Part shown: positions 4,667-12,238 of the stretch, in pieces
Layout: each line of letters opens with the position of its first letter
How positions within the stretch are numbered: position 1 is the first letter of the stretch
From: Actinomycetota bacterium
Lineage (GTDB): Bacteria > Actinomycetota > Coriobacteriia > Anaerosomatales > UBA912
NCBI GenBank assembly: GCA_018334075.1
Contig: JAGXSC010000001.1
Span: 1 to 33,535 of the forward strand
DNA: 33,535 bases
Reading direction: 5' to 3'
Notes under the pieces: generated by a model
The model's input: the letters and a program-made list of their open reading frames with translations, nothing else
What the model was told of the DNA's origin: nothing
The model's database searches: none
Position numbers and translations under genes: made by a program

Positions 4667-5977
4667 TCATTCGTGCCGAAGCGCGTTCAGCGGATCAAGA
4701 TTGGCTGCGCGAACAGCCGGAAACATCCCTGCCAGCAAACCGACGGAGGCCGAAAAAACCACCGCAAACACGGCTAGCCATAAAGGGATATGAAAAAATG
4801 CCATCTGCGTCTCGCCGTCCGCCGCCGCGCCCGCCGGCTGCATCGCCATCTGCATCGCGATGTAGTCTTGCACGAAAAGATTCCCAAGGGCCGCTGTGGA
4901 TACCGAAAACGCAAGACCGATGACGCCACCTAAAACCCCGATGATTGACGCTTCACCCAAAAACACGCGCTTTATCTGCCGGTTGGATGCCCCAACCGCC
5001 TTCATGATGCCTATCTCTTTTGTTCGCTCATAGATCGACATCGTCATGGTGTTGGTGATTCCGAGCGCCGCAACAATCATGGCAATCGCACCAAGGGCGC
5101 CGAGCACCCCCTGGATAATCAGAAACATGCTATTTATGCCCTGCTGCATCGTGCGCGCCGAAAAAGGCTCGTACCCCATCTCTCTAAGTTCGGCCTCTAT
5201 ATCGGCCACATCCACTGGTGAATCGGCCTGGACGATCAAGCTGTCATACACCGGCCTTCTCGTGGCTGTCCCGTTAAGTTCCAAGGCCGCATCCAAAGTG
5301 ATAAACGCCGACCTGTCAGTTTGCATATCCGCCGACGCCAAAACTCCTACGACTGTCATCCTGCGGGTGTGCTCCTGCGGCTCCTGAATGGTTTCGGCGT
5401 CCATTTCGATGCCTTCAACGGGAAAATCCGTATAAGTCAGGTCCAGGCGAGCGCCAAGTAAGTCGGCAGGCTCATAGCGCTGGATCTCCCCATCTACAAA
5501 GAAAGCATCACGCGGAACCATCGCCCCTACTACTACTTCGCCCTCACTTCTAGGGAGGCGGCCGTGCTCGACCGCAAATCCCAGCTGCTCGAAGGCGTCT
5601 ATCTCCACGCCTTGCATCGAAAAAAACGCAGTGCTCCTTTTATACTCAATCCCTGTCACGGTAACAGGCGCTACCTGAGGCATAACCACATCCACGTTTT
5701 CGATAGCCTCTATCTCCGCGACAGATCGTGAGTCTATCGACTTCGGATCCGCCATGCCCGGCATGAACCCGGCGAACACGTTGATGTGTGTCGCTGCCCC
5801 CATCGCGCCTAGCTCCTCGGTGACGTTTCGCTGAAGTCCTATCCCGACCGCCATCATCAGCACTATCGAAGACGTGCCGATAACAACTCCTGTCACAGTG
5901 AGCGCAAGCCGCAACCTCATTCGCTTGAGATTGGAGATGGTCAGAACTATCTGGTCCTTAGCGCGCAAATCATCCAC
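4667..5977 (-). CDS. ABC transporter permease, MacB/FtsX type
   Basis: Membrane component of a type VII-like (MacB/FtsX) ABC system. I place the start at GTG 5977, which overlaps the upstream stop (436 aa). The frame is open to an ATG at 6136, which would add about 53 basic residues inside the neighbouring gene and is less likely. TM1 is about residues 22-45 (LALTVTGVVIGTSSIVLMMAVGIG). A large extracytoplasmic MacB periplasmic-core-like domain (about 60-300) follows, then three TM segments, with the FtsX signature around NTMTMSIYERTKEIGIMKAVGAS and a typical end AANLDPLNALRHE. Such proteins do not pump across the membrane by alternating access. They transmit ATP-driven movements to extracytoplasmic partners, and here the exported CARDB-like protein is the obvious candidate. 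Confidence 0.9.
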   Translation of the reverse strand: MDDLRAKDQIVLTISNLKRMRLRLALTVTGVVIGTSSIVLMMAVGIGLQRNVTEELGAMGAATHINVFAGFMPGMADPKSIDSRSVAEIEAIENVDVVMPQVAPVTVTGIEYKRSTAFFSMQGVEIDAFEQLGFAVEHGRLPRSEGEVVVGAMVPRDAFFVDGEIQRYEPADLLGARLDLTYTDFPVEGIEMDAETIQEPQEHTRRMTVVGVLASADMQTDRSAFITLDAALELNGTATRRPVYDSLIVQADSPVDVADIEAELREMGYEPFSARTMQQGINSMFLIIQGVLGALGAIAMIVAALGITNTMTMSIYERTKEIGIMKAVGASNRQIKRVFLGEASIIGVLGGVIGLAFSVSTAALGNLFVQDYIAMQMAMQPAGAAADGETQMAFFHIPLWLAVFAVVFSASVGLLAGMFPAVRAANLDPLNALRHE

Positions 5978-6941
5978 CCAGTCCGAAAAACGCCCTGACA
6001 AACGCGATAAACCAGTTTTCCTCGCGCGCGTCACCCGGCTCTTCGCCCTCGCCATTTGCTTCCTCGGCTGCGACAGGCTCTTCAACTGCAACCGTACGTG
6101 TCTCACGATGGGATTGAGCCTGGCCAAAATCGTCACGGTACTCTAAAACCAACACAACCTCTAGCTCGCCGGGTTCTTCCGCGCGAACTACCGATTCGAT
6201 CGACTCGATTGTTGCAGGAGCAAAGTTGCCGATAAACCAGCTTCCGTCCGTGACACTCGCACCGCTCGCCTCGACAGAAAGTTTCGCGGCCTTGAGCTCG
6301 AACGCGCTTGCGTTAGCAAGCTCAAAACTTGTGGTGAAGTCTTCTCCTGCCACAACTTTGGAGGGAACTTCCGCTGTCACGAGAGAGAGGACGGGCACGC
6401 GCTCGACTATCAGCCCGATCGTGTAGACGACCTCATGACGCACTCCCTCATACTCGAAGCTGATATTGACTGGCACATTTAGCGCCCCCGCCGAGACCCC
6501 GGGGGTCGTAACCACATCAAAGGTCACATCAGCCTGCCTTTGTCCCCTTAGCGCGCCGATATGCTTTGCGTTCCCAGTACCCAAAACCGCAAGGCCCCCC
6601 GCACCCGCGGCAGCTGGCGGGGTCTCGGCGCCGGCAACCGAGACAAGAACGTTTTCTGCCCGACGCGCTGTAGTGTTGAGGATGCTCAGCCTGAGCGCAA
6701 AGGGATCCCCAGCTAATATTCTCTCAGGTGTGGTCGAAAACGACCTGATTATAAGCAGCGGAATGGGGGTGGGCGATGCCGCGATCGTCTCGGCTGAAGT
6801 AAGCGAAACGGGCACAGCCTCCTGAGGCCCATCGGCCGGAGTCGCCTGAACCGGCGCCCACGTCGTAAAAACCAAGGCAGCACAGATCAGGGCAGCGACA
6901 CTTACCCTCAGAGCCCGCCGGATTGGCAATACAATAGTCAC
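5970..6941 (-). CDS. Exported CARDB/COG1361-like protein of the ABC module
   Basis: 323 aa. An N-terminal signal sequence (about residues 8-33, ending PVQA) is followed by two immunoglobulin-like beta-rich repeats. The first (about 62-175) starts LLIIRSFSTTPERILAGDPFALRLSILNTT. The second (about 185-285) starts VPVLSLVTAEVPSKVVAGEDFTTSFELANAS. That layout, with phrases such as 'AGEDF...N.S', is that of CARDB/NEW3-like domains (COG1361). A Glu/Ala-rich linker leads to a short hydrophobic C-terminal segment (WFIAFVRAFFGLGG) that could be a membrane anchor. The start codon overlaps the ATPase stop by 4 bp and its stop overlaps the permease start, so the three genes look translationally coupled. 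Probable role: extracytoplasmic partner or adaptor of the transporter. Substrate unknown. Confidence 0.78.
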   Translation of the reverse strand: MTIVLPIRRALRVSVAALICAALVFTTWAPVQATPADGPQEAVPVSLTSAETIAASPTPIPLLIIRSFSTTPERILAGDPFALRLSILNTTARRAENVLVSVAGAETPPAAAGAGGLAVLGTGNAKHIGALRGQRQADVTFDVVTTPGVSAGALNVPVNISFEYEGVRHEVVYTIGLIVERVPVLSLVTAEVPSKVVAGEDFTTSFELANASAFELKAAKLSVEASGASVTDGSWFIGNFAPATIESIESVVRAEEPGELEVVLVLEYRDDFGQAQSHRETRTVAVEEPVAAEEANGEGEEPGDAREENWFIAFVRAFFGLGG

Positions 6942-7636
6942 GAGCCTCCTCCTTTTTCGATGCTTTCGATTTTCCCGTCAAGGATGTGAACAATCCTGTC
7001 AGCCAGAGTTTCAGCGACCCTGCTGTCATGAGTAGAGATAAGAAACGTCCTTCCGTCTTTATTCATCTGCAAAATCAAATCCAGAATTTCCTGTCCGGTA
7101 GCAGTATCGAGATTTCCGGTCGGTTCGTCAGCGAGAATTACAGTCGGTTCGTTGACCACCGCCCGAGCTATGGCGACTCTTTGCTGCTCTCCACCTGACA
7201 ATTCTGTCGGCTTATGGTCAAGGCGGTGTCCAAGTCCTGTCGATTCCAGGGCCCGGAAAGCCCGCTTCCTGCGCTCTTCGCTGGTCAGGCCAGCAAAGAC
7301 CAGTGGCAGTTCGACATTGCTTCTCGCGGTCATGCTCGCGATGAGGTTGAACGACTGAAAGACAAACCCGACCTCGCGACGCCGATATCCAGCTAGCCGC
7401 TCATCGTTCATTTGGGCAAGATCTTCTCCACTGGCGAACACGGTGCCAGCTGTTGGACGATCAAGTCCGCCGATGATGTTGAGCAGCGTCGACTTCCCGG
7501 AACCGGACGGGCCCATCACGCAAACAATCTCTCCGCGCTCAATCGTGAGATCTATTCCCTGCAATACCTCGAGCGGCTCTCCGCCCATTACGTAGTGCTT
7601 GGTAAGACCTGTAACCTCTACTACGCCAGTCAACAT
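6938..7636 (-). CDS. ABC transporter ATP-binding protein, MacB/LolD type
   Basis: 232 aa cytoplasmic ATPase. All motifs are visible: Walker [10 protein letters not shown] (about 41-49), Q-loop FQSFNL, signature [14 protein letters not shown], Walker [13 protein letters not shown] and H-loop STHDSRV. The 'GNLD' D-loop and overall length are typical of the MacB/LolD/FtsE group that partners FtsX-like permeases. It is the first gene of the minus-strand cluster. ATG 7636 has a GGGGG-type ribosome-binding site, and 35-75 bp upstream lies the tandem 20-bp direct repeat described separately. Its stop overlaps the start of the exported CARDB-like gene (ATGA). Likely drives a mechanotransmission-type exporter or efflux system. 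The cargo cannot be told from sequence. Confidence 0.95.
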
Positions 7637-7848: not shown

Positions 7849-8391
7849 TTAATCTTTAGTGGCGGTGTTCGCCACCGGTGAGGCTCCGCCGAGGGAGGCC
7901 CGTGGCGTCGAGTTCACATGGCTTGCGATGATCGCGGCGTCGCGGTTCGTCAGATTGTCGATCGAGGTCTTCTCGGGGACGATGCGGCGAAGCAGGCGGT
8001 GGCAAACCCGTTCCCAAGCAGGGACTGGAGCGCATTGAATACCTCCTCGACACACGCCCTCCACGCAGTCGATCTCGACAGCCGAGAGCCGCTCGTCGTC
8101 GGTAAGAGCGAGGAAGTCGGTGTGGGTGCGCCCCTCCGGGACGAAGAAGCGCTCCGGTGGGGCGCTTAACGCTTGCGCGGCCGGTAGCGGCACTTGGTCA
8201 CCAGGTCGATCATGGCCAAGAAGGTACCCTTCCTCTCTGCGGTTGCGAACGACCTCGCGCGTGATGCTCGAGACGCTTCGGCCAAGACTTCTGGCGATCG
8301 AGCTCACGGACTCGTCGGCACCAAGCGTCCGCTCGATCTCCAAGCGGTCGTCGTAGGTGAGGTGGCGATAGCCACAGGGATTCTCCGGCAT
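7849..8391 (-). pseudogene. IS30-family transposase, central catalytic region deleted
   Basis: Starting at ATG 8391, the N-terminus (MPENPCGYRHLTYDDRLEIE, followed by SVSSIARSLGRSVSSITREV) is a clear IS30 helix-turn-helix. The segment around VEIDCVEG resembles the motif that carries the first catalytic Asp of the IS30 DDE core. The frame then jumps to RLLRRIVPEK, TSIDNLTNRD and NSTPRASLGG, which corresponds to the very C-terminal part after the last catalytic Glu (family pattern NRLLREYFPKGTS and LN.RPRK.LG). Roughly the middle third, including the second Asp, is absent, so this product cannot be an active transposase. The frame is also open upstream to 8550, outside the element, but that extension shows no family similarity. 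Confidence 0.8.
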
Positions 8392-8523
8392 GCGGGTACT
8401 CCTCTCTGTCGTCAAGGCCCACCGGAGACGAGGCGGCGGATGCCAGAGAGGATAGGGTGACGCGAGGAATCGGGATAGTGAGGATGCTCGGGGTAAGACC
8501 TGCCAGACTAAGTGCAAGACCAT

Positions 8524-8541
8524 TTGCACTGACTTTGTCAA
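8524..8541 (-). repeat. Right terminal inverted repeat of the IS30-type remnant
   Basis: Read on the minus strand this is TTGACAAAGTCAGTGCAA, pairing with the left end. A second partial match (TTGCACTTAGTC on the minus strand, about 8509-8520) follows just inside, as in many IS30 ends where the repeat extends inward with lower identity. Confidence 0.85.
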
Positions 8542-8559
8542 TTCAGGCATAAAAAAGTA

Positions 8560-8589
8560 TTGACGCGGGGGGTGTTATAGGATCAATAT
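8560..8589 (+). promoter_or_regulatory. Weak candidate promoter of the secreted-protein island
   Basis: A good -35 hexamer TTGACG at 8560-8565 lies just outside the IS right end. The best -10 is CAATAT at 8584-8589 (18-nt spacer), which is poor. This is the only promoter-like pair I see ahead of the first shared-leader gene. There is no equivalent before the second copy, which may rely on read-through. Confidence 0.3.
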
Positions 8590-8721
8590 ATCCATAAGGG
8601 GGCAACTTTTCCCAATCACAATCCAAGGAAAGATTGTGCGGGGCGGTTGTCGGAAAATAATTGAGAGGGGCGTGGAAGTTAATGAAGAGGAAGTTCCGTA
8701 TTGTCTCGCTGTTTCTGACGG
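8590..8721 (+). repeat. 132-bp direct repeat, copy 1 (leader plus signal-peptide start)
   Basis: Matches 10716-10847 with about six substitutions and no gaps (about 95 percent identity). It covers about 92 bp of untranslated leader and the first 13 codons of the exported protein that follows. The leader contains an inverted repeat, CACAATC-N8-GATTGTG (about 8618-8639), which is imperfect in copy 2. Identity stops abruptly inside the signal-peptide hydrophobic core. Confidence 0.92.
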
Positions 8722-9407
8722 TTGCTCTGCTGATGTCTGCCTTTGTGACTCCGGCTGTCGCAAGGCAAGGGAACGGAAGGGGGCAAGAAAAACAAAGTGC
8801 GCGGCAAATTCAGTACCTTGATGCAGAAGTTCGGGTGATTGACGGACAGCCGGTGCTTAAGGTTGAGGCAGAAGAAGGATATTCATCCTATGAATTTCCC
8901 TGGCCAGAAGTAGCAGTTGTCGATGGCAGGAGAGTTGCCCTAGAAAGGCAAGGTAACTACTTTTTGTTGCCGACAGATGATGGTAACGAAAAAGTCTCCG
9001 TCGAGGAATTTCAGGTGGCACTGGTAGCAGGACAATTAATGTTAGTAAAAAATGTGAATCCTTGGTTTGGGGTAAAAATCGCAGTTGCTGCTGCTGCACT
9101 AAAGGCAGCGGGAGTGGCAGTAACGACGTCAACCTTAAAGGCTGCGAGCATATTGATATCAGCAGGTGCAAAGGTAACCAAAGCAACAGTTAACGTGGTA
9201 GTGCGCGTTTGGCCAATACTAAGAATCGCACTTCAAGTGGCGGGAATTGCCAATACAACCTGGAATCTCGTACAGGCAGGTAGGGCCTGGGTACGAGGTA
9301 ATTGCATATCTTGTGGTCAAAGAACACCTGGCGGTTCTTTCGGTGATGTTTTTAGCAGTGGATGCGCCCAAAGGTATGGTGTTCAGTTCTTTGGGGGACG
9401 CCCCTAG
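8682..9407 (+). CDS. Secreted protein of unknown function, Ala/Val-rich hydrophobic middle, Cys-containing tail
   Basis: I do not recognise this protein. Starting at ATG 8682 (241 aa), residues 1-28 are a Sec signal peptide (MKRKFRIVSLFLTVALLM, then SAFVTPAVA). The mature part has a beta-rich segment (about 45-110, with repeated Val/Tyr/Glu patterns). A long stretch of about 75 residues follows, rich in Ala, Val and Lys with little acid (for example VKIAVAAAALKAAGVAVTTS), which looks amphipathic or membrane-active. The polar tail carries CISCGQ and one more Cys. An alternative TTG start at 8661 is possible. Its leader and signal-peptide start are duplicated at 10716-10847. Membrane-protein genes follow directly, so a bacteriocin-with-immunity arrangement is conceivable but unproven. 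Confidence 0.75.
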   Translation: MKRKFRIVSLFLTVALLMSAFVTPAVARQGNGRGQEKQSARQIQYLDAEVRVIDGQPVLKVEAEEGYSSYEFPWPEVAVVDGRRVALERQGNYFLLPTDDGNEKVSVEEFQVALVAGQLMLVKNVNPWFGVKIAVAAAALKAAGVAVTTSTLKAASILISAGAKVTKATVNVVVRVWPILRIALQVAGIANTTWNLVQAGRAWVRGNCISCGQRTPGGSFGDVFSSGCAQRYGVQFFGGRP

Positions 9408-9428
9408 ATGCCCTTCTAAAGATAATTA

Positions 9429-9469
9429 CTCACAGGCTACCCTGGCTTTACGGTGGGGTAGCCTGTGAG
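9429..9469 (+). terminator. Strong hairpin, possible transcription terminator or attenuator
   Basis: Perfect 14-bp stem (CTCACAGGCTACCC with GGGTAGCCTGTGAG) around a 13-nt loop, 22 bp after the secreted-protein stop. No T-run follows (GCGTATAAATC), so it may be a partial terminator, an RNA-stability element, or act in both directions. Confidence 0.6.
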
Positions 9470-9498
9470 CGTATAAATCTTAGTTGGGAGGGACCCTC

Positions 9499-9990
9499 TT
9501 GTTTGTGGATATGACTCTTGTGGATATATTAGTTCATGTGCTTCTACTTTTAGTGGTACTCCTGCTGTCTGTTCATTTACTGTTAGTTATTCCAACATCT
9601 TTTGGAGTATTTCTTGGGCAAAAGGCCGGATTGTGGAGCACAAAAAACCGTTTAGGAAAAACCAAAGGTGAGCACGCTTTTCCCCTCCCATACGATGCCA
9701 AAAATTTTTTCTGGTGGGGCATTTTCGCTGTTTTCCTAACAGTTGAAACGATAATTATGATATTGGGTGACTTGGATATACCTAATATACCTATACTGCC
9801 ACAAACATTATTTTTTCCATTTTATATTTACAGAGCTTTACTGATACAGCAACTAGAAGAACCAGTGTATGTCATGGTTTATAGCATTCTTATGATGACA
9901 GGAGTCTTTGCTGTTGGTTTTGTAAGAGCATTATTGTTTACGCGGAAGAAAGAGCTGAAGGCTGACAGTATTGCCCTGACCGAAGATTGA
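9499..9990 (+). CDS. Hypothetical multi-pass membrane protein (about four helices)
   Basis: Not recognised. I favour TTG 9499 as start because GGGAGGG lies 6 nt ahead. GTG 9505 and ATG 9511 are in frame alternatives (160-164 aa). A very hydrophobic first helix (rich in Leu/Val) is followed by a cytoplasmic or external loop with several Lys, then FFWWGIFAVFLTVETIIMIL, a short central hydrophobic segment, and a last helix VYVMVYSILMMTGVFAVGFV ahead of a charged tail. It lies downstream of the secreted protein with the hairpin between them and is visibly AT-rich compared with the chromosomal genes on both sides, which suggests transfer. Possible roles include self-protection against the upstream product or assistance in its export. 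Both are guesses. Confidence 0.7.
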   Translation: MFVDMTLVDILVHVLLLLVVLLLSVHLLLVIPTSFGVFLGQKAGLWSTKNRLGKTKGEHAFPLPYDAKNFFWWGIFAVFLTVETIIMILGDLDIPNIPILPQTLFFPFYIYRALLIQQLEEPVYVMVYSILMMTGVFAVGFVRALLFTRKKELKADSIALTED

Positions 9991-10108
9991 CATATTCTCA
10001 CCTTCCATTTGAATGATTAGTAAAAACGCGTCTCTGCGAAGGCTGAGGGACGAAAAAGGCATCGACTACCAGGTCGGCGTCTAGACACAGGGAAGGCGGG
10101 ATCACGAC

Positions 10109-10657
10109 ATGGCTAGTCAGCTGGGACAAAAAAATCGCGAGGTATTCGACAGGGCGCTCAAAAAGTATGTCGGAAGTAGATTGGTTTGGTCCTTGATGTT
10201 CGCGGTAGCGCTTCCCTTTTTTGCATTTTGGTATCTTGGAAAAAATCAGGTGTATACCCATAGCCTTGCAGGCGTCGCGATTTTTTGTGTGGTGTATTTA
10301 GGCTACTCGCTGATCCAATACCTAATATACCTGCTGATCCAACGCCCAACACACCGGAGGACCTTCCAGAGCTACAAGACTGAAGAAGCGTTTGCGACCG
10401 TAGACGAACTGAAAACGGCCTATCGGACACTGATACAGCGCGCGGCACGAAAAAGTCTGTCGGTGAGTCTGGGCGTATATGCGTCAGTCGGAACGTTTGT
10501 TGCGGTGTGGATCTCCTCATGGCATGGCTTTACCTCTGCAGAGAGAGAGGGACTCATCTTCGTGGCGCTCGCCGTGGGCGCAGTATCGTTGATAGAGTTC
10601 ATGGACTACACGCAGGTTCGATGGGATAAAGGTTTCCCCGCAGAGCTGGAGAGCTGA
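10109..10657 (+). CDS. Hypothetical membrane protein, two helix pairs with a charged central domain
   Basis: 182 aa, ATG 10109 with GGAAGGCGGG 8 nt upstream. A basic N-terminus precedes two helices (about 27-43 and 54-75), then a hydrophilic region of about 35 residues (PTHRRTFQSYKTEEAFATVD and onward), then two more helices (about 117-135 and 149-165) and a charged tail. No family is recognised. It has the same topology class as the preceding membrane protein but no visible sequence similarity to it. It ends 58 bp before the second copy of the shared leader, so it may form a unit with the genes before it. The 118-bp gap upstream holds a 23-codon open frame at 10013-10084 that I do not treat as a gene. 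Confidence 0.75.
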   Translation: MASQLGQKNREVFDRALKKYVGSRLVWSLMFAVALPFFAFWYLGKNQVYTHSLAGVAIFCVVYLGYSLIQYLIYLLIQRPTHRRTFQSYKTEEAFATVDELKTAYRTLIQRAARKSLSVSLGVYASVGTFVAVWISSWHGFTSAEREGLIFVALAVGAVSLIEFMDYTQVRWDKGFPAELES

Positions 10658-10715
10658 GGAAAAGGAGGCAGGAGTAGAGAATGGGACTAGAGGCCATCTC
10701 ATCAAAACCGGGGGC

Positions 10716-10847
10716 ATCCATAAGGGGGCAACTTTTCTCAATCACAAGCCAAGGAAAGATTGTGCGGGGCGGTTGTCGGAAAATAATTGAGAGGGGCGCG
10801 GAAGTTAATGGGGAAGAAGTTCCGTATTGTCTCGCTGTTTCTGACGG
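10716..10847 (+). repeat. 132-bp direct repeat, copy 2 (leader plus signal-peptide start)
   Basis: Second copy of the segment at 8590-8721, offset by 2126 bp. Two substitutions fall in the early leader, one just before the start codon and three in codons 2-3. The first Lys-Arg pair becomes Gly-Lys, and the next ten residues KKFRIVSLFLT are unchanged apart from this. Beyond 10847 the two genes diverge completely. Confidence 0.92.
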
Positions 10848-11401
10848 GTGTTCTGTGTTTAACAATAATCGGTGGCATACTTTGGCACCAAAATAGAGTA
10901 GTGGGTGAGGCTGTTCCGAATGATGGGCATGAAGCGTACTTGAAGGTAATTAGCACAGGTGGCCGGGGGCTTCTAGAGAATGTCCCTGAGTACATTGAAC
11001 ATGTCGCCTCCGGTGAAAGAATTCCCTTGCGGCAGCATGCGAAAGACCTCCTTGATGGTACGCGGGGCGAGGCCGTAGATATGCTAGGCTTTTATCTGAT
11101 GGAACCGCGAACGGGGCAATCGATCGCCAGCCCCGTTCGAGTAAAGCTTTGGCACGCCACCAATCATTACGGAGGGGGAATACTGCGGATCACCGATACT
11201 AATGGCAACACCCTAGCCAGACTTCAGCTTCCCGAGATTTCTCATTATAACCTCACCCAGCACGCTTACGAAACCGAAATAACATTCGAGCAACCTGCTA
11301 CTACTGGGGGGTTCATCGTTGGACACTTATGGAGCGCGAAGGATGAATACCCGGATGACTATAAAAAGGCTGCTGTAAGTATTCCCATCGTATTCAGATA
11401 A
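10808..11401 (+). CDS. Exported protein with Gmad2-like C-terminal domain, shared leader copy 2
   Basis: 197 aa from ATG 10808. The N-terminus MGKKFRIVSLFLTGVLCLTI continues as a signal or anchor helix (to about 30). The first 13 codons come from the duplicated segment. The mature part has two regions: about 45-95, not recognised, and about 100-197, which resembles the Gmad2 immunoglobulin-like fold seen in exported Gram-positive proteins. Its signs are TGQSIASPVRVK at the opening, ILRITDTNGNTLARLQL in the middle, and a closing strand ending SIPIVFR. The Gmad2 assignment rests on pattern memory only. Its mature sequence shares nothing visible with the first shared-leader gene. Whether it is secreted or membrane-tethered depends on cleavage, and no clear AxA site is seen. 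Confidence 0.75.
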   Translation: MGKKFRIVSLFLTGVLCLTIIGGILWHQNRVVGEAVPNDGHEAYLKVISTGGRGLLENVPEYIEHVASGERIPLRQHAKDLLDGTRGEAVDMLGFYLMEPRTGQSIASPVRVKLWHATNHYGGGILRITDTNGNTLARLQLPEISHYNLTQHAYETEITFEQPATTGGFIVGHLWSAKDEYPDDYKKAAVSIPIVFR

Positions 11402-11429: not shown

Positions 11430-11858
11430 TTGCTTAATGGCCATCTCATAGCCATAAAAGGAAACTACAAATTCTGCTATTCCATTTCGATTGAACAACA
11501 AGGGGACACTATAGTGCTTTTGGGTTCGTTTTACGCATTGTTTGAAAACAATATTATTTCGGTCTGTGAGCGATTAAATTTTAGGATAGAGCATATTATT
11601 GAATTGCGCGTTAATGGTGCATTGGCTGTTTACTACATCCGTAATAATCCCTTTGCCAAAGGAAAGGCCTTATTTGCTGTTATTGACAACCCCGATGGTA
11701 GTAAATCTTCGGCTCGGTTAAATATTGAGATGGACAAAAGTTGGAAGCATCCAACACTTATTTTGTTTATAGATGGGGACAAGGTTGATCTCAGTGAAAG
11801 TACTGAAGCAGAGGTAAAGAAGAAGGTCCAAGAGATGGGGTACTTTTATGAGAAATAA
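11430..11858 (+). CDS. Hypothetical protein, possibly N-terminally truncated
   Basis: Not recognised, 142 aa from TTG 11430. There is no convincing ribosome-binding site and no early ATG. The frame stays open upstream into the end of the previous gene, so the true start is uncertain or the N-terminus has been lost. The body alternates beta-strand-like segments (YKFCYSISIEQQGDTIVLLG, VNGALAVYYIRN, KGKALFAVIDNPDG) and ends with an acidic helix. No signal peptide or membrane helix is visible, so it is probably cytoplasmic. Base composition is clearly AT-rich, like the membrane protein at 9499-9990 and unlike the chromosomal operons. It is the last gene of the island before the terminator at 11963-12003. 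Confidence 0.55.
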   Translation: MLNGHLIAIKGNYKFCYSISIEQQGDTIVLLGSFYALFENNIISVCERLNFRIEHIIELRVNGALAVYYIRNNPFAKGKALFAVIDNPDGSKSSARLNIEMDKSWKHPTLILFIDGDKVDLSESTEAEVKKKVQEMGYFYEK

Positions 11859-12151: not shown

Positions 12152-12238
12152 GCCCGGGTGGCGGAACTGGCAGACGCGCCGGTCTCAAAAACCGGTTCTC
12201 GAAAGGGAGTGCGGGTTCGATTCCCGCCCCGGGCACCA
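12152..12238 (+). tRNA. tRNA-Leu (anticodon CAA)
   Basis: 87 nt including an encoded CCA end. The acceptor stem GCCCGGG pairs with CCCGGGC, with discriminator A. The anticodon arm is CCGGT-CTCAAAA-ACCGG, giving anticodon CAA (reads UUG). A long variable arm (TCTCGAAAGGGAG) makes it class II as expected for leucine, and the T-arm GCGGGTTCGATTCCCGC is canonical. It is transcribed toward the LOG gene, which converges from the minus strand and stops only 2 bp away. Confidence 0.97.

What the first reader, a model, noticed from the sequence alone, without database searches (positions are those of the whole stretch)
8590..10847. Two secreted-protein genes share one 132-bp leader and signal-peptide start but have unrelated mature parts
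The leader plus the first 13 codons is about 95 percent identical between 8590-8721 and 10716-10847. Identity stops inside the signal peptide. This looks like a modular cassette in which a common expression and secretion head is joined to different payloads, as if payloads are exchanged by recombination in the shared segment. Both payloads sit next to multi-pass membrane proteins. I do not know a described system with this arrangement.
Basis: partly seen in the sequence, partly recalled or inferred. Interest (0 to 1): 0.68.

Follow-up and report, generated by a model that had tools for sequence, protein, structure and literature searches.

The report
Swappable secretion head on toxin-like payloads
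Several bacteria, at least some of them from strongly alkaline serpentinite waters, carry many copies of one gene start (leader plus secretion signal) joined to at least seven different, mostly toxin-like protein endings beside likely immunity genes; this window holds two of them, which points to an undescribed family of exchangeable secreted antibacterial toxins.

Summary
The repeat is real: 8590-8729 and 10716-10855 match at 132 of 140 bases, and identity stops at about codon 16. The two payloads share nothing beyond residues 1-20.

Only these two near-identical copies exist in the genome. Diverged copies of the same head (leader and/or signal peptide) are common: about seven in this genome and about twelve more in five others, from two phyla. 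They are joined to at least seven tails: A (window 8682-9404, hydrophobic helices plus a Cys tail), B (DUF4258-like, weak), C, D, E (beside an ABC transporter), F (window 10808-11398, Gmad2-like) and G (DUF6973). Most of the intact units are followed by a small membrane or soluble gene that looks like an immunity gene. Orphan and displaced copies of these genes also occur.

Leaders cluster by genome while tails cluster by type. The window's own type A gene is a mosaic: its head is nearest a same-genome paralogue, its tail nearest a Bacillota homologue.

Best reading: a new, compact, Sec-exported polymorphic toxin (bacteriocin-like) family, diversified by recombination in the shared head. Secretion, toxicity and immunity are inferred. 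The second window copy lacks the promoter box and carries a Gmad2-like payload, so it may be an accidental head capture.

The parts
8560..8589 (+). TTGACG box (8560-8565) with an AT-rich -10-like stretch at about 8583-8589; likely promoter of copy 1, absent upstream of copy 2
   Evidence: The TTGACG box is conserved upstream of C42, C7, C64, L029, L031; not picked up by the generic promoter scan, so inferred
8590..8681 (+). Leader (5' UTR) copy 1
   Evidence: Repeat D1; homologous leaders in other genomes
8682..9407 (+). Type A secreted protein, 241 aa: signal peptide 1 to about 27, beta head domain about 45-127 (8814-9062), helical and Cys-containing tail 128-241 (9063-9404)
   Evidence: Homologues at 40-65%, AlphaFold2 model, domain-wise identities
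9484..9990 (+). Membrane protein of three TM-like segments, likely type A immunity protein (start may be 9511)
   Evidence: Same family follows type A genes in C42 and L028, and occurs as orphan copies
10109..10657 (+). Membrane protein of four TM-like segments, role unknown, directly upstream of copy 2
   Evidence: ORF, hydropathy; no family above cutoff
10716..10807 (+). Leader copy 2, without the promoter box
   Evidence: Repeat D1; sequence upstream unrelated to copy 1
10808..11401 (+). Type F payload, 197 aa: 13-16 shared codons, anchor-like N-terminal helix, Gmad2-like C-terminus
   Evidence: Similarity to Germane-Gmad2 proteins, low-confidence model with helix 4-28 and beta strands
11430..11858 (+). 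Soluble 142-aa ORF downstream of copy 2, possible partner of payload F
   Evidence: ORF; no family above cutoff; role is a guess
7849..8550 (-). Transposase remnant at the left edge of the island
   Evidence: HTH_38, E 4.7e-12; IS30-type from general knowledge
12152..12238 (+). tRNA-Leu (CAA) at the right edge of the AT-richer island
   Evidence: ARAGORN; composition

Best explanation
The shared segment is the constant head of a family of small (about 200-375 aa) Sec-exported polymorphic toxins. The head is a promoter, a leader of about 95 nt and a signal peptide, followed in types A and B by a beta domain of about 83 residues. Each head drives and exports one of several C-terminal payloads, and most payloads are followed by their own immunity gene. 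Homologous recombination in the shared head, or further down in the beta domain and hydrophobic linker, swaps payload-immunity units and homogenises heads within a genome, leaving displaced tails and orphan immunity genes behind. In the window, copy 1 is an apparently intact unit (type A toxin plus three-TM immunity protein); copy 2 is a promoterless head copy joined to a Gmad2-like, probably membrane-anchored protein. Shown: head sharing, unrelated payloads, mosaics, adjacent and orphan partner genes. Inferred: export, killing, immunity, and recombination as the route.
For: Heads with at least seven unrelated tails in six genomes of two phyla. One partner family follows type A genes in three loci and another follows type B genes. 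Orphan or displaced partner genes and tails: C42, C19, L029, G001, and a type D tail remnant plus its partner behind the type B unit in L031. Leader identity 78% within against 59% between genomes (permutation p 2e-4); different tails in one genome 78%, same tail in different genomes 56%. Window type A gene: head 83% to C42 and 67% to L028, tail 51% and 66%. C60 joins an A-like head to a B tail. L051 has an L028-like UTR and an L050-like signal peptide. ABC ATPase next to type E scores second-best against the lantibiotic-protection subfamily, below cutoff. Type G has DUF6973.
Against: No tail except G comes close to a curated family, and G is just below the cutoff. No activity data exist. Payload F is Gmad2-like, which is not a known toxin domain. 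Partner genes were not shown to protect. Some copies are decayed or cut by contig ends, and C60 (3.6 kb contig) may be misbinned. Leaders could also be similar within a genome through plain recent duplication.
Confidence: 0.68

Rival explanations
1. For the window pair only: a local duplication copied the 5' end of the type A gene in front of an unrelated ORF (Gmad2-like) without functional design. The wider family may be polymorphic, but this pair is a passive by-product.
For: Copy 2 has no TTGACG box and the repeat begins about where copy 1 transcription should start; its N-terminus is anchor-like, without an AxA cleavage motif; the payload is Gmad2-like.
Against: Reading frame, ribosome-binding region and hydrophobic N-terminus are intact in copy 2 and the ORF is open over 197 codons; the leader is also duplicated behind the immunity gene in L028.
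Confidence: 0.4
2. The payloads are not toxins but diverse secreted surface or envelope proteins that share a strong expression-and-secretion module.
For: Payload F resembles Gmad2; no activity data; most tails have no family.
Against: Dedicated partner families per tail type, orphan partners, displaced tails and DUF6973 in type G fit toxin-immunity loci better.
Confidence: 0.2
3. The conserved element is a regulatory RNA (leader switch or thermometer) that ties a regulon together, and the signal-peptide similarity is secondary.
For: The noncoding leader is homologous across phyla and two leaders occur without a signal peptide.
Against: No Rfam match; folding no better than shuffles for the window copies; stem support mostly one-sided; coding heads are shared as far as leaders.
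Confidence: 0.1
4. Assembly or binning artefact.
For: Several contigs end inside the head (C64, C60, L047), as expected at repeats; C60 may be misbinned.
Against: The window pair lies 2.1 kb apart on one contig with 6% divergence; C42 and C7 run through head and payload on 40 and 95 kb contigs; the pattern recurs in independent MAGs.
Confidence: 0.03

Closest known systems
Polymorphic toxin systems (Zhang et al. 2012, PMC3482391)
   Same: Constant N-terminal trafficking part, variable C-terminal part, toxin-then-immunity gene order, strings of displaced immunity genes, exchange by recombination
   Different: Here the constant part can shrink to leader plus signal peptide, proteins are small, there is no known trafficking domain, and most tails lack a family
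MafB/MafI of Neisseria (PMC5349182)
   Same: Signal peptide plus a short conserved N-terminal domain, variable C-terminus, adjacent immunity gene, several loci per genome on islands
   Different: MafB has DUF1020; this head has no Pfam match and occurs in Actinobacteria and Bacillota
SitA lipoprotein toxins of myxobacteria (PMC8546572)
   Same: Modular head and polymorphic tail with a cognate immunity gene, many alleles per genome
   Different: SitA are lipoproteins with an escort domain of about 375 aa delivered by outer-membrane exchange; none of this applies here
CDI ionophore toxins (PMC11630599)
   Same: Helical, membrane-active C-terminal domain paired with a polymorphic immunity protein
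   Different: Those are CdiA C-termini, described from E. coli isolates; the resemblance to types A, C and D rests on hydropathy and one moderate-confidence model

Membership tests
Polymorphic toxin systems | Constant N-terminal export part | tested here: met
   Signal-peptide head shared by all types; types A and B also share a beta domain
Polymorphic toxin systems | Variable, unrelated C-terminal parts | tested here: met
   At least seven tail types; A and F match only over residues 1-20
Polymorphic toxin systems | Immunity gene directly downstream, specific for the tail type | tested here: inconclusive
   Partner families track tails A and B and are found next to C and D; protection not testable here
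Polymorphic toxin systems | Displaced tails and orphan immunity genes | tested here: met
   L031 D remnant and partner behind a type B unit; orphan partners in C42, C19, L029, G001
Polymorphic toxin systems | Head-tail exchange by recombination | tested here: met
   Mosaics in the window type A gene, C60 and L051; clustering of leaders by genome
Polymorphic toxin systems | Recognised toxin domain in the tail | tested here: inconclusive
   DUF6973 in type G just under cutoff; DUF4258 far below cutoff in C60; none for A, C, D, E, F
Polymorphic toxin systems | Toxic activity | not testable with these tools
   Needs expression assays
MafB | DUF1020 head | tested here: not met
   No Pfam match in the head
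PrsW-dependent polymorphic toxins | N-terminal PrsW peptidase domain | tested here: not met
   No PrsW match; the head has a single hydrophobic signal segment
SitA lipoprotein toxins | Lipoprotein with an escort domain of about 375 aa | tested here: not met
   Mature head about 100 aa and no lipobox apparent in the signal peptide
Known Rfam leader or riboswitch families | Covariance-model match in the leader | tested here: not met
   No leader match at E up to 10 in the window region or up to 2 in L028, L029, L031

The most novel reading that the evidence does not exclude
The exchange unit is the 5' regulatory-plus-signal-peptide segment itself: a small head (promoter, leader, signal peptide) that spreads by recombination and can capture almost any downstream ORF, toxins and also non-toxins such as the Gmad2-like protein in the window, across the Actinobacteria-Bacillota boundary in alkaline communities.
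Probability: 0.25. Interest if true: 0.8.

Novelty: new variant of a known kind. Interest (0 to 1): 0.6.

Why it matters
If true, this is a small Sec-dependent polymorphic toxin family that no library searched here names, shared between two phyla and found in MAGs that include serpentinite-site genomes. Its heads are short and nearly identical within a genome, so head-payload swapping can be followed by reading breakpoints, and the toxin-partner pairs are small enough to test directly. It would also supply several membrane-active toxin and immunity families that lack Pfam models.

Tried and rejected
Tandem paralogues over the full length: rejected, profile comparison aligns residues 1-20 only. 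Known RNA family in the leader: no match. Family membership through Pfam, NCBIfam and PDB sequence: nothing for types A-F beyond below-cutoff noise such as Bee_toxin on the signal peptide. PDB fold search: no hit at E 0.001 for type A; only weak, generic beta hits for F. Plasmid, phage and viral-contig searches: none. DNA-level leader copies in 60 relatives: none. Paper searches found no description of this family. A first leader identity table used a wrong start for L047 and was replaced; one script failed part-way and its test was redone.

Full report
OBSERVATION. The window holds one long direct repeat, 8590-8729 and 10716-10855, with 8 differences in 140 bases. Both edges are sharp. The shared part is about 92 nt of leader plus 13-16 codons of a signal peptide. 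Only these two copies of this version exist in the genome, and none was found in 60 relatives by DNA. The two proteins match over residues 1-20 only, by BLASTP and by profile-profile comparison.

SETTING. The two genes lie in an AT-richer stretch (GC down to 0.41) between a transposase remnant (HTH_38, 7849-8550) and a tRNA-Leu at 12152, while most of the rest of the window has GC 0.5-0.65. The genome is an unnamed MAG in the same family as Actinobacteria bacterium UBA912; this is inferred because the G003 contig and DBEG01000069.1 have the same length, 5444, and the same match.

THE HEAD ELSEWHERE IN THIS GENOME. A protein search with copy 1 finds C42 (65%, nearly full length), C60 (57% over residues 14-177, other tail), and C7 and C64 (signal-peptide region only). 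On DNA, C42, C7 and C64 share about 245 bp at 93-94%, including a TTGACG box, leader and signal peptide. C42 then continues as type A, C7 as an unrelated protein followed by an ABC ATPase and permease; C64 ends with its contig. C42 holds a further leader copy without a toxin, followed by two partner-like membrane genes. C60 begins at its contig end, is only 3.6 kb, and may be misbinned.

THE HEAD IN OTHER GENOMES. One scan of 85,000 species genomes gave four loci: Clostridium sp. CROMO_A_128, Dethiobacter sp. CROMO_SB6, Bacillota HKB214 and UBA912. [quoted passage not shown] that HKB refers to Hakuba is a guess from the name. Searching those genomes and their class gave more heads with other tails: L048 and L051 (type C), L050 (D), L049 (A, decayed), L047 (cut by the contig end), L054 (G), and a leader without signal peptide at G070:C83. 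Four of 98 genomes in that class and two of 69 in the window's order hold full family members. The noncoding leader is itself homologous across the phyla.

THE TAILS. Type A: hydrophobic helices and a C-terminal Cys motif. Type B (C60, L029, L031): weakly DUF4258-like in C60, far below cutoff. Types C and D: no family. Type E: no family, next to an ABC transporter. Type F (window copy 2): its C-terminus matches proteins that carry Germane plus Gmad2. Type G: DUF6973 at 26.7 bits against a cutoff of 27. None of A-F has a Pfam or NCBIfam assignment.

PARTNER GENES. Type A genes in the window, C42 and L028 are each followed by a membrane protein of one family, with three TM-like segments in the two that were counted; orphan members sit in C42, C19, L029 and G001. 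Type B genes are followed by a protein of about 170 residues, double-length in C60 and present in extra copies in L031. In L031 a remnant of tail D and its partner gene lie behind the type B unit, 88.8% identical to L050. Strings of immunity genes left behind by earlier swaps are what Zhang et al. describe for polymorphic toxin loci (PMC3482391). The UBA912 type A gene has a different neighbour, a large membrane protein.

RECOMBINATION. Leader identity is 78% within and 59% between genomes (permutation p 2e-4). Pairs with the same tail in different genomes average 56%; pairs with different tails in one genome average 78%. These comparisons share sequences, so the p-value is a guide only. The window type A gene has a head closest to its genome-mate C42 (83%, against 67% to L028) but a tail closest to L028 of the other phylum (66%, against 51%); C60 has an A-like head and a B tail. 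L051 has an L028-like UTR (79 of 95) and an L050-like signal peptide (60 of 66 against 44 of 66 for L028). Breakpoints therefore fall near the start codon, within the signal peptide and after the beta domain. In C42, C64 and C19 the units are also flanked by copies of the 3' end of a hemN-like gene, consistent with duplication of whole units.

STRUCTURE. AlphaFold2 gives type A a beta-rich head domain (49-123) and four helices (133-206) with moderate confidence (pLDDT 65) and no PDB match at E 0.001. Type F gives a low-confidence, beta-rich model (pLDDT 57) whose best PDB hits are generic. The leader RNA has a possible GGCAAC/GTTGCC stem, but support is mostly one-sided changes.

INTERPRETATION. 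The best reading is a new, compact, Sec-exported polymorphic toxin family. Head sharing, tail diversity, orphan partners and mosaics are shown. Export follows from the signal peptides by general knowledge. Toxicity, immunity and the recombination route are inferred. For the window pair, copy 1 with 9484-9990 looks like an intact toxin-immunity unit. Copy 2 lacks the promoter box, has an anchor-like N-terminus and a Gmad2-like payload, and may be an accidental capture of the head.

NOVELTY. The architecture is known (polymorphic toxins, MafB). The head, most tails and the partners are not in the libraries searched, and a constant part reduced to leader and signal peptide is unusual among the systems compared here. 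It is rated a new variant of a known kind.

Noticed in passing
L023:8748-8867, L023:6410-6448, L026:7173-7292, L068:2115-2234: Copies of the 3' end of a hemN-like gene (intact at L023:10086-11375) flank head and partner copies, nearly all broken off at the same point of the gene.
   Followed up: partly
L026:459-1306 and L026:1458-2206 / 6345-7093: Tandem array with a unit of about 66 bp, and a 749-bp repeat at 96%, on the contig (C64) that ends inside a head copy; an ORF at 6434-6778 looks MazF-like (family from memory).
   Followed up: no
L029:2614-3357: ORF next to the type B unit in the Dethiobacter MAG that looks like an ADP-ribosyltransferase-fold (DUF3990-like) protein, from memory only.
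   Followed up: no
L028:1856-2353: Second head copy behind the immunity gene of a type A unit with a short, apparently decayed payload: the same layout as the window.
   Followed up: partly
window 8590 / 10716: The repeat starts about where transcription of copy 1 should start, so copy 2 lacks the promoter box; an RNA-templated copy is conceivable but untested.
   Followed up: no
window 4667-7636: FtsX/MacB-type permease, a secreted protein and an ABC ATPase on the minus strand left of the island; looks like an ordinary MacAB-like exporter.
   Followed up: no
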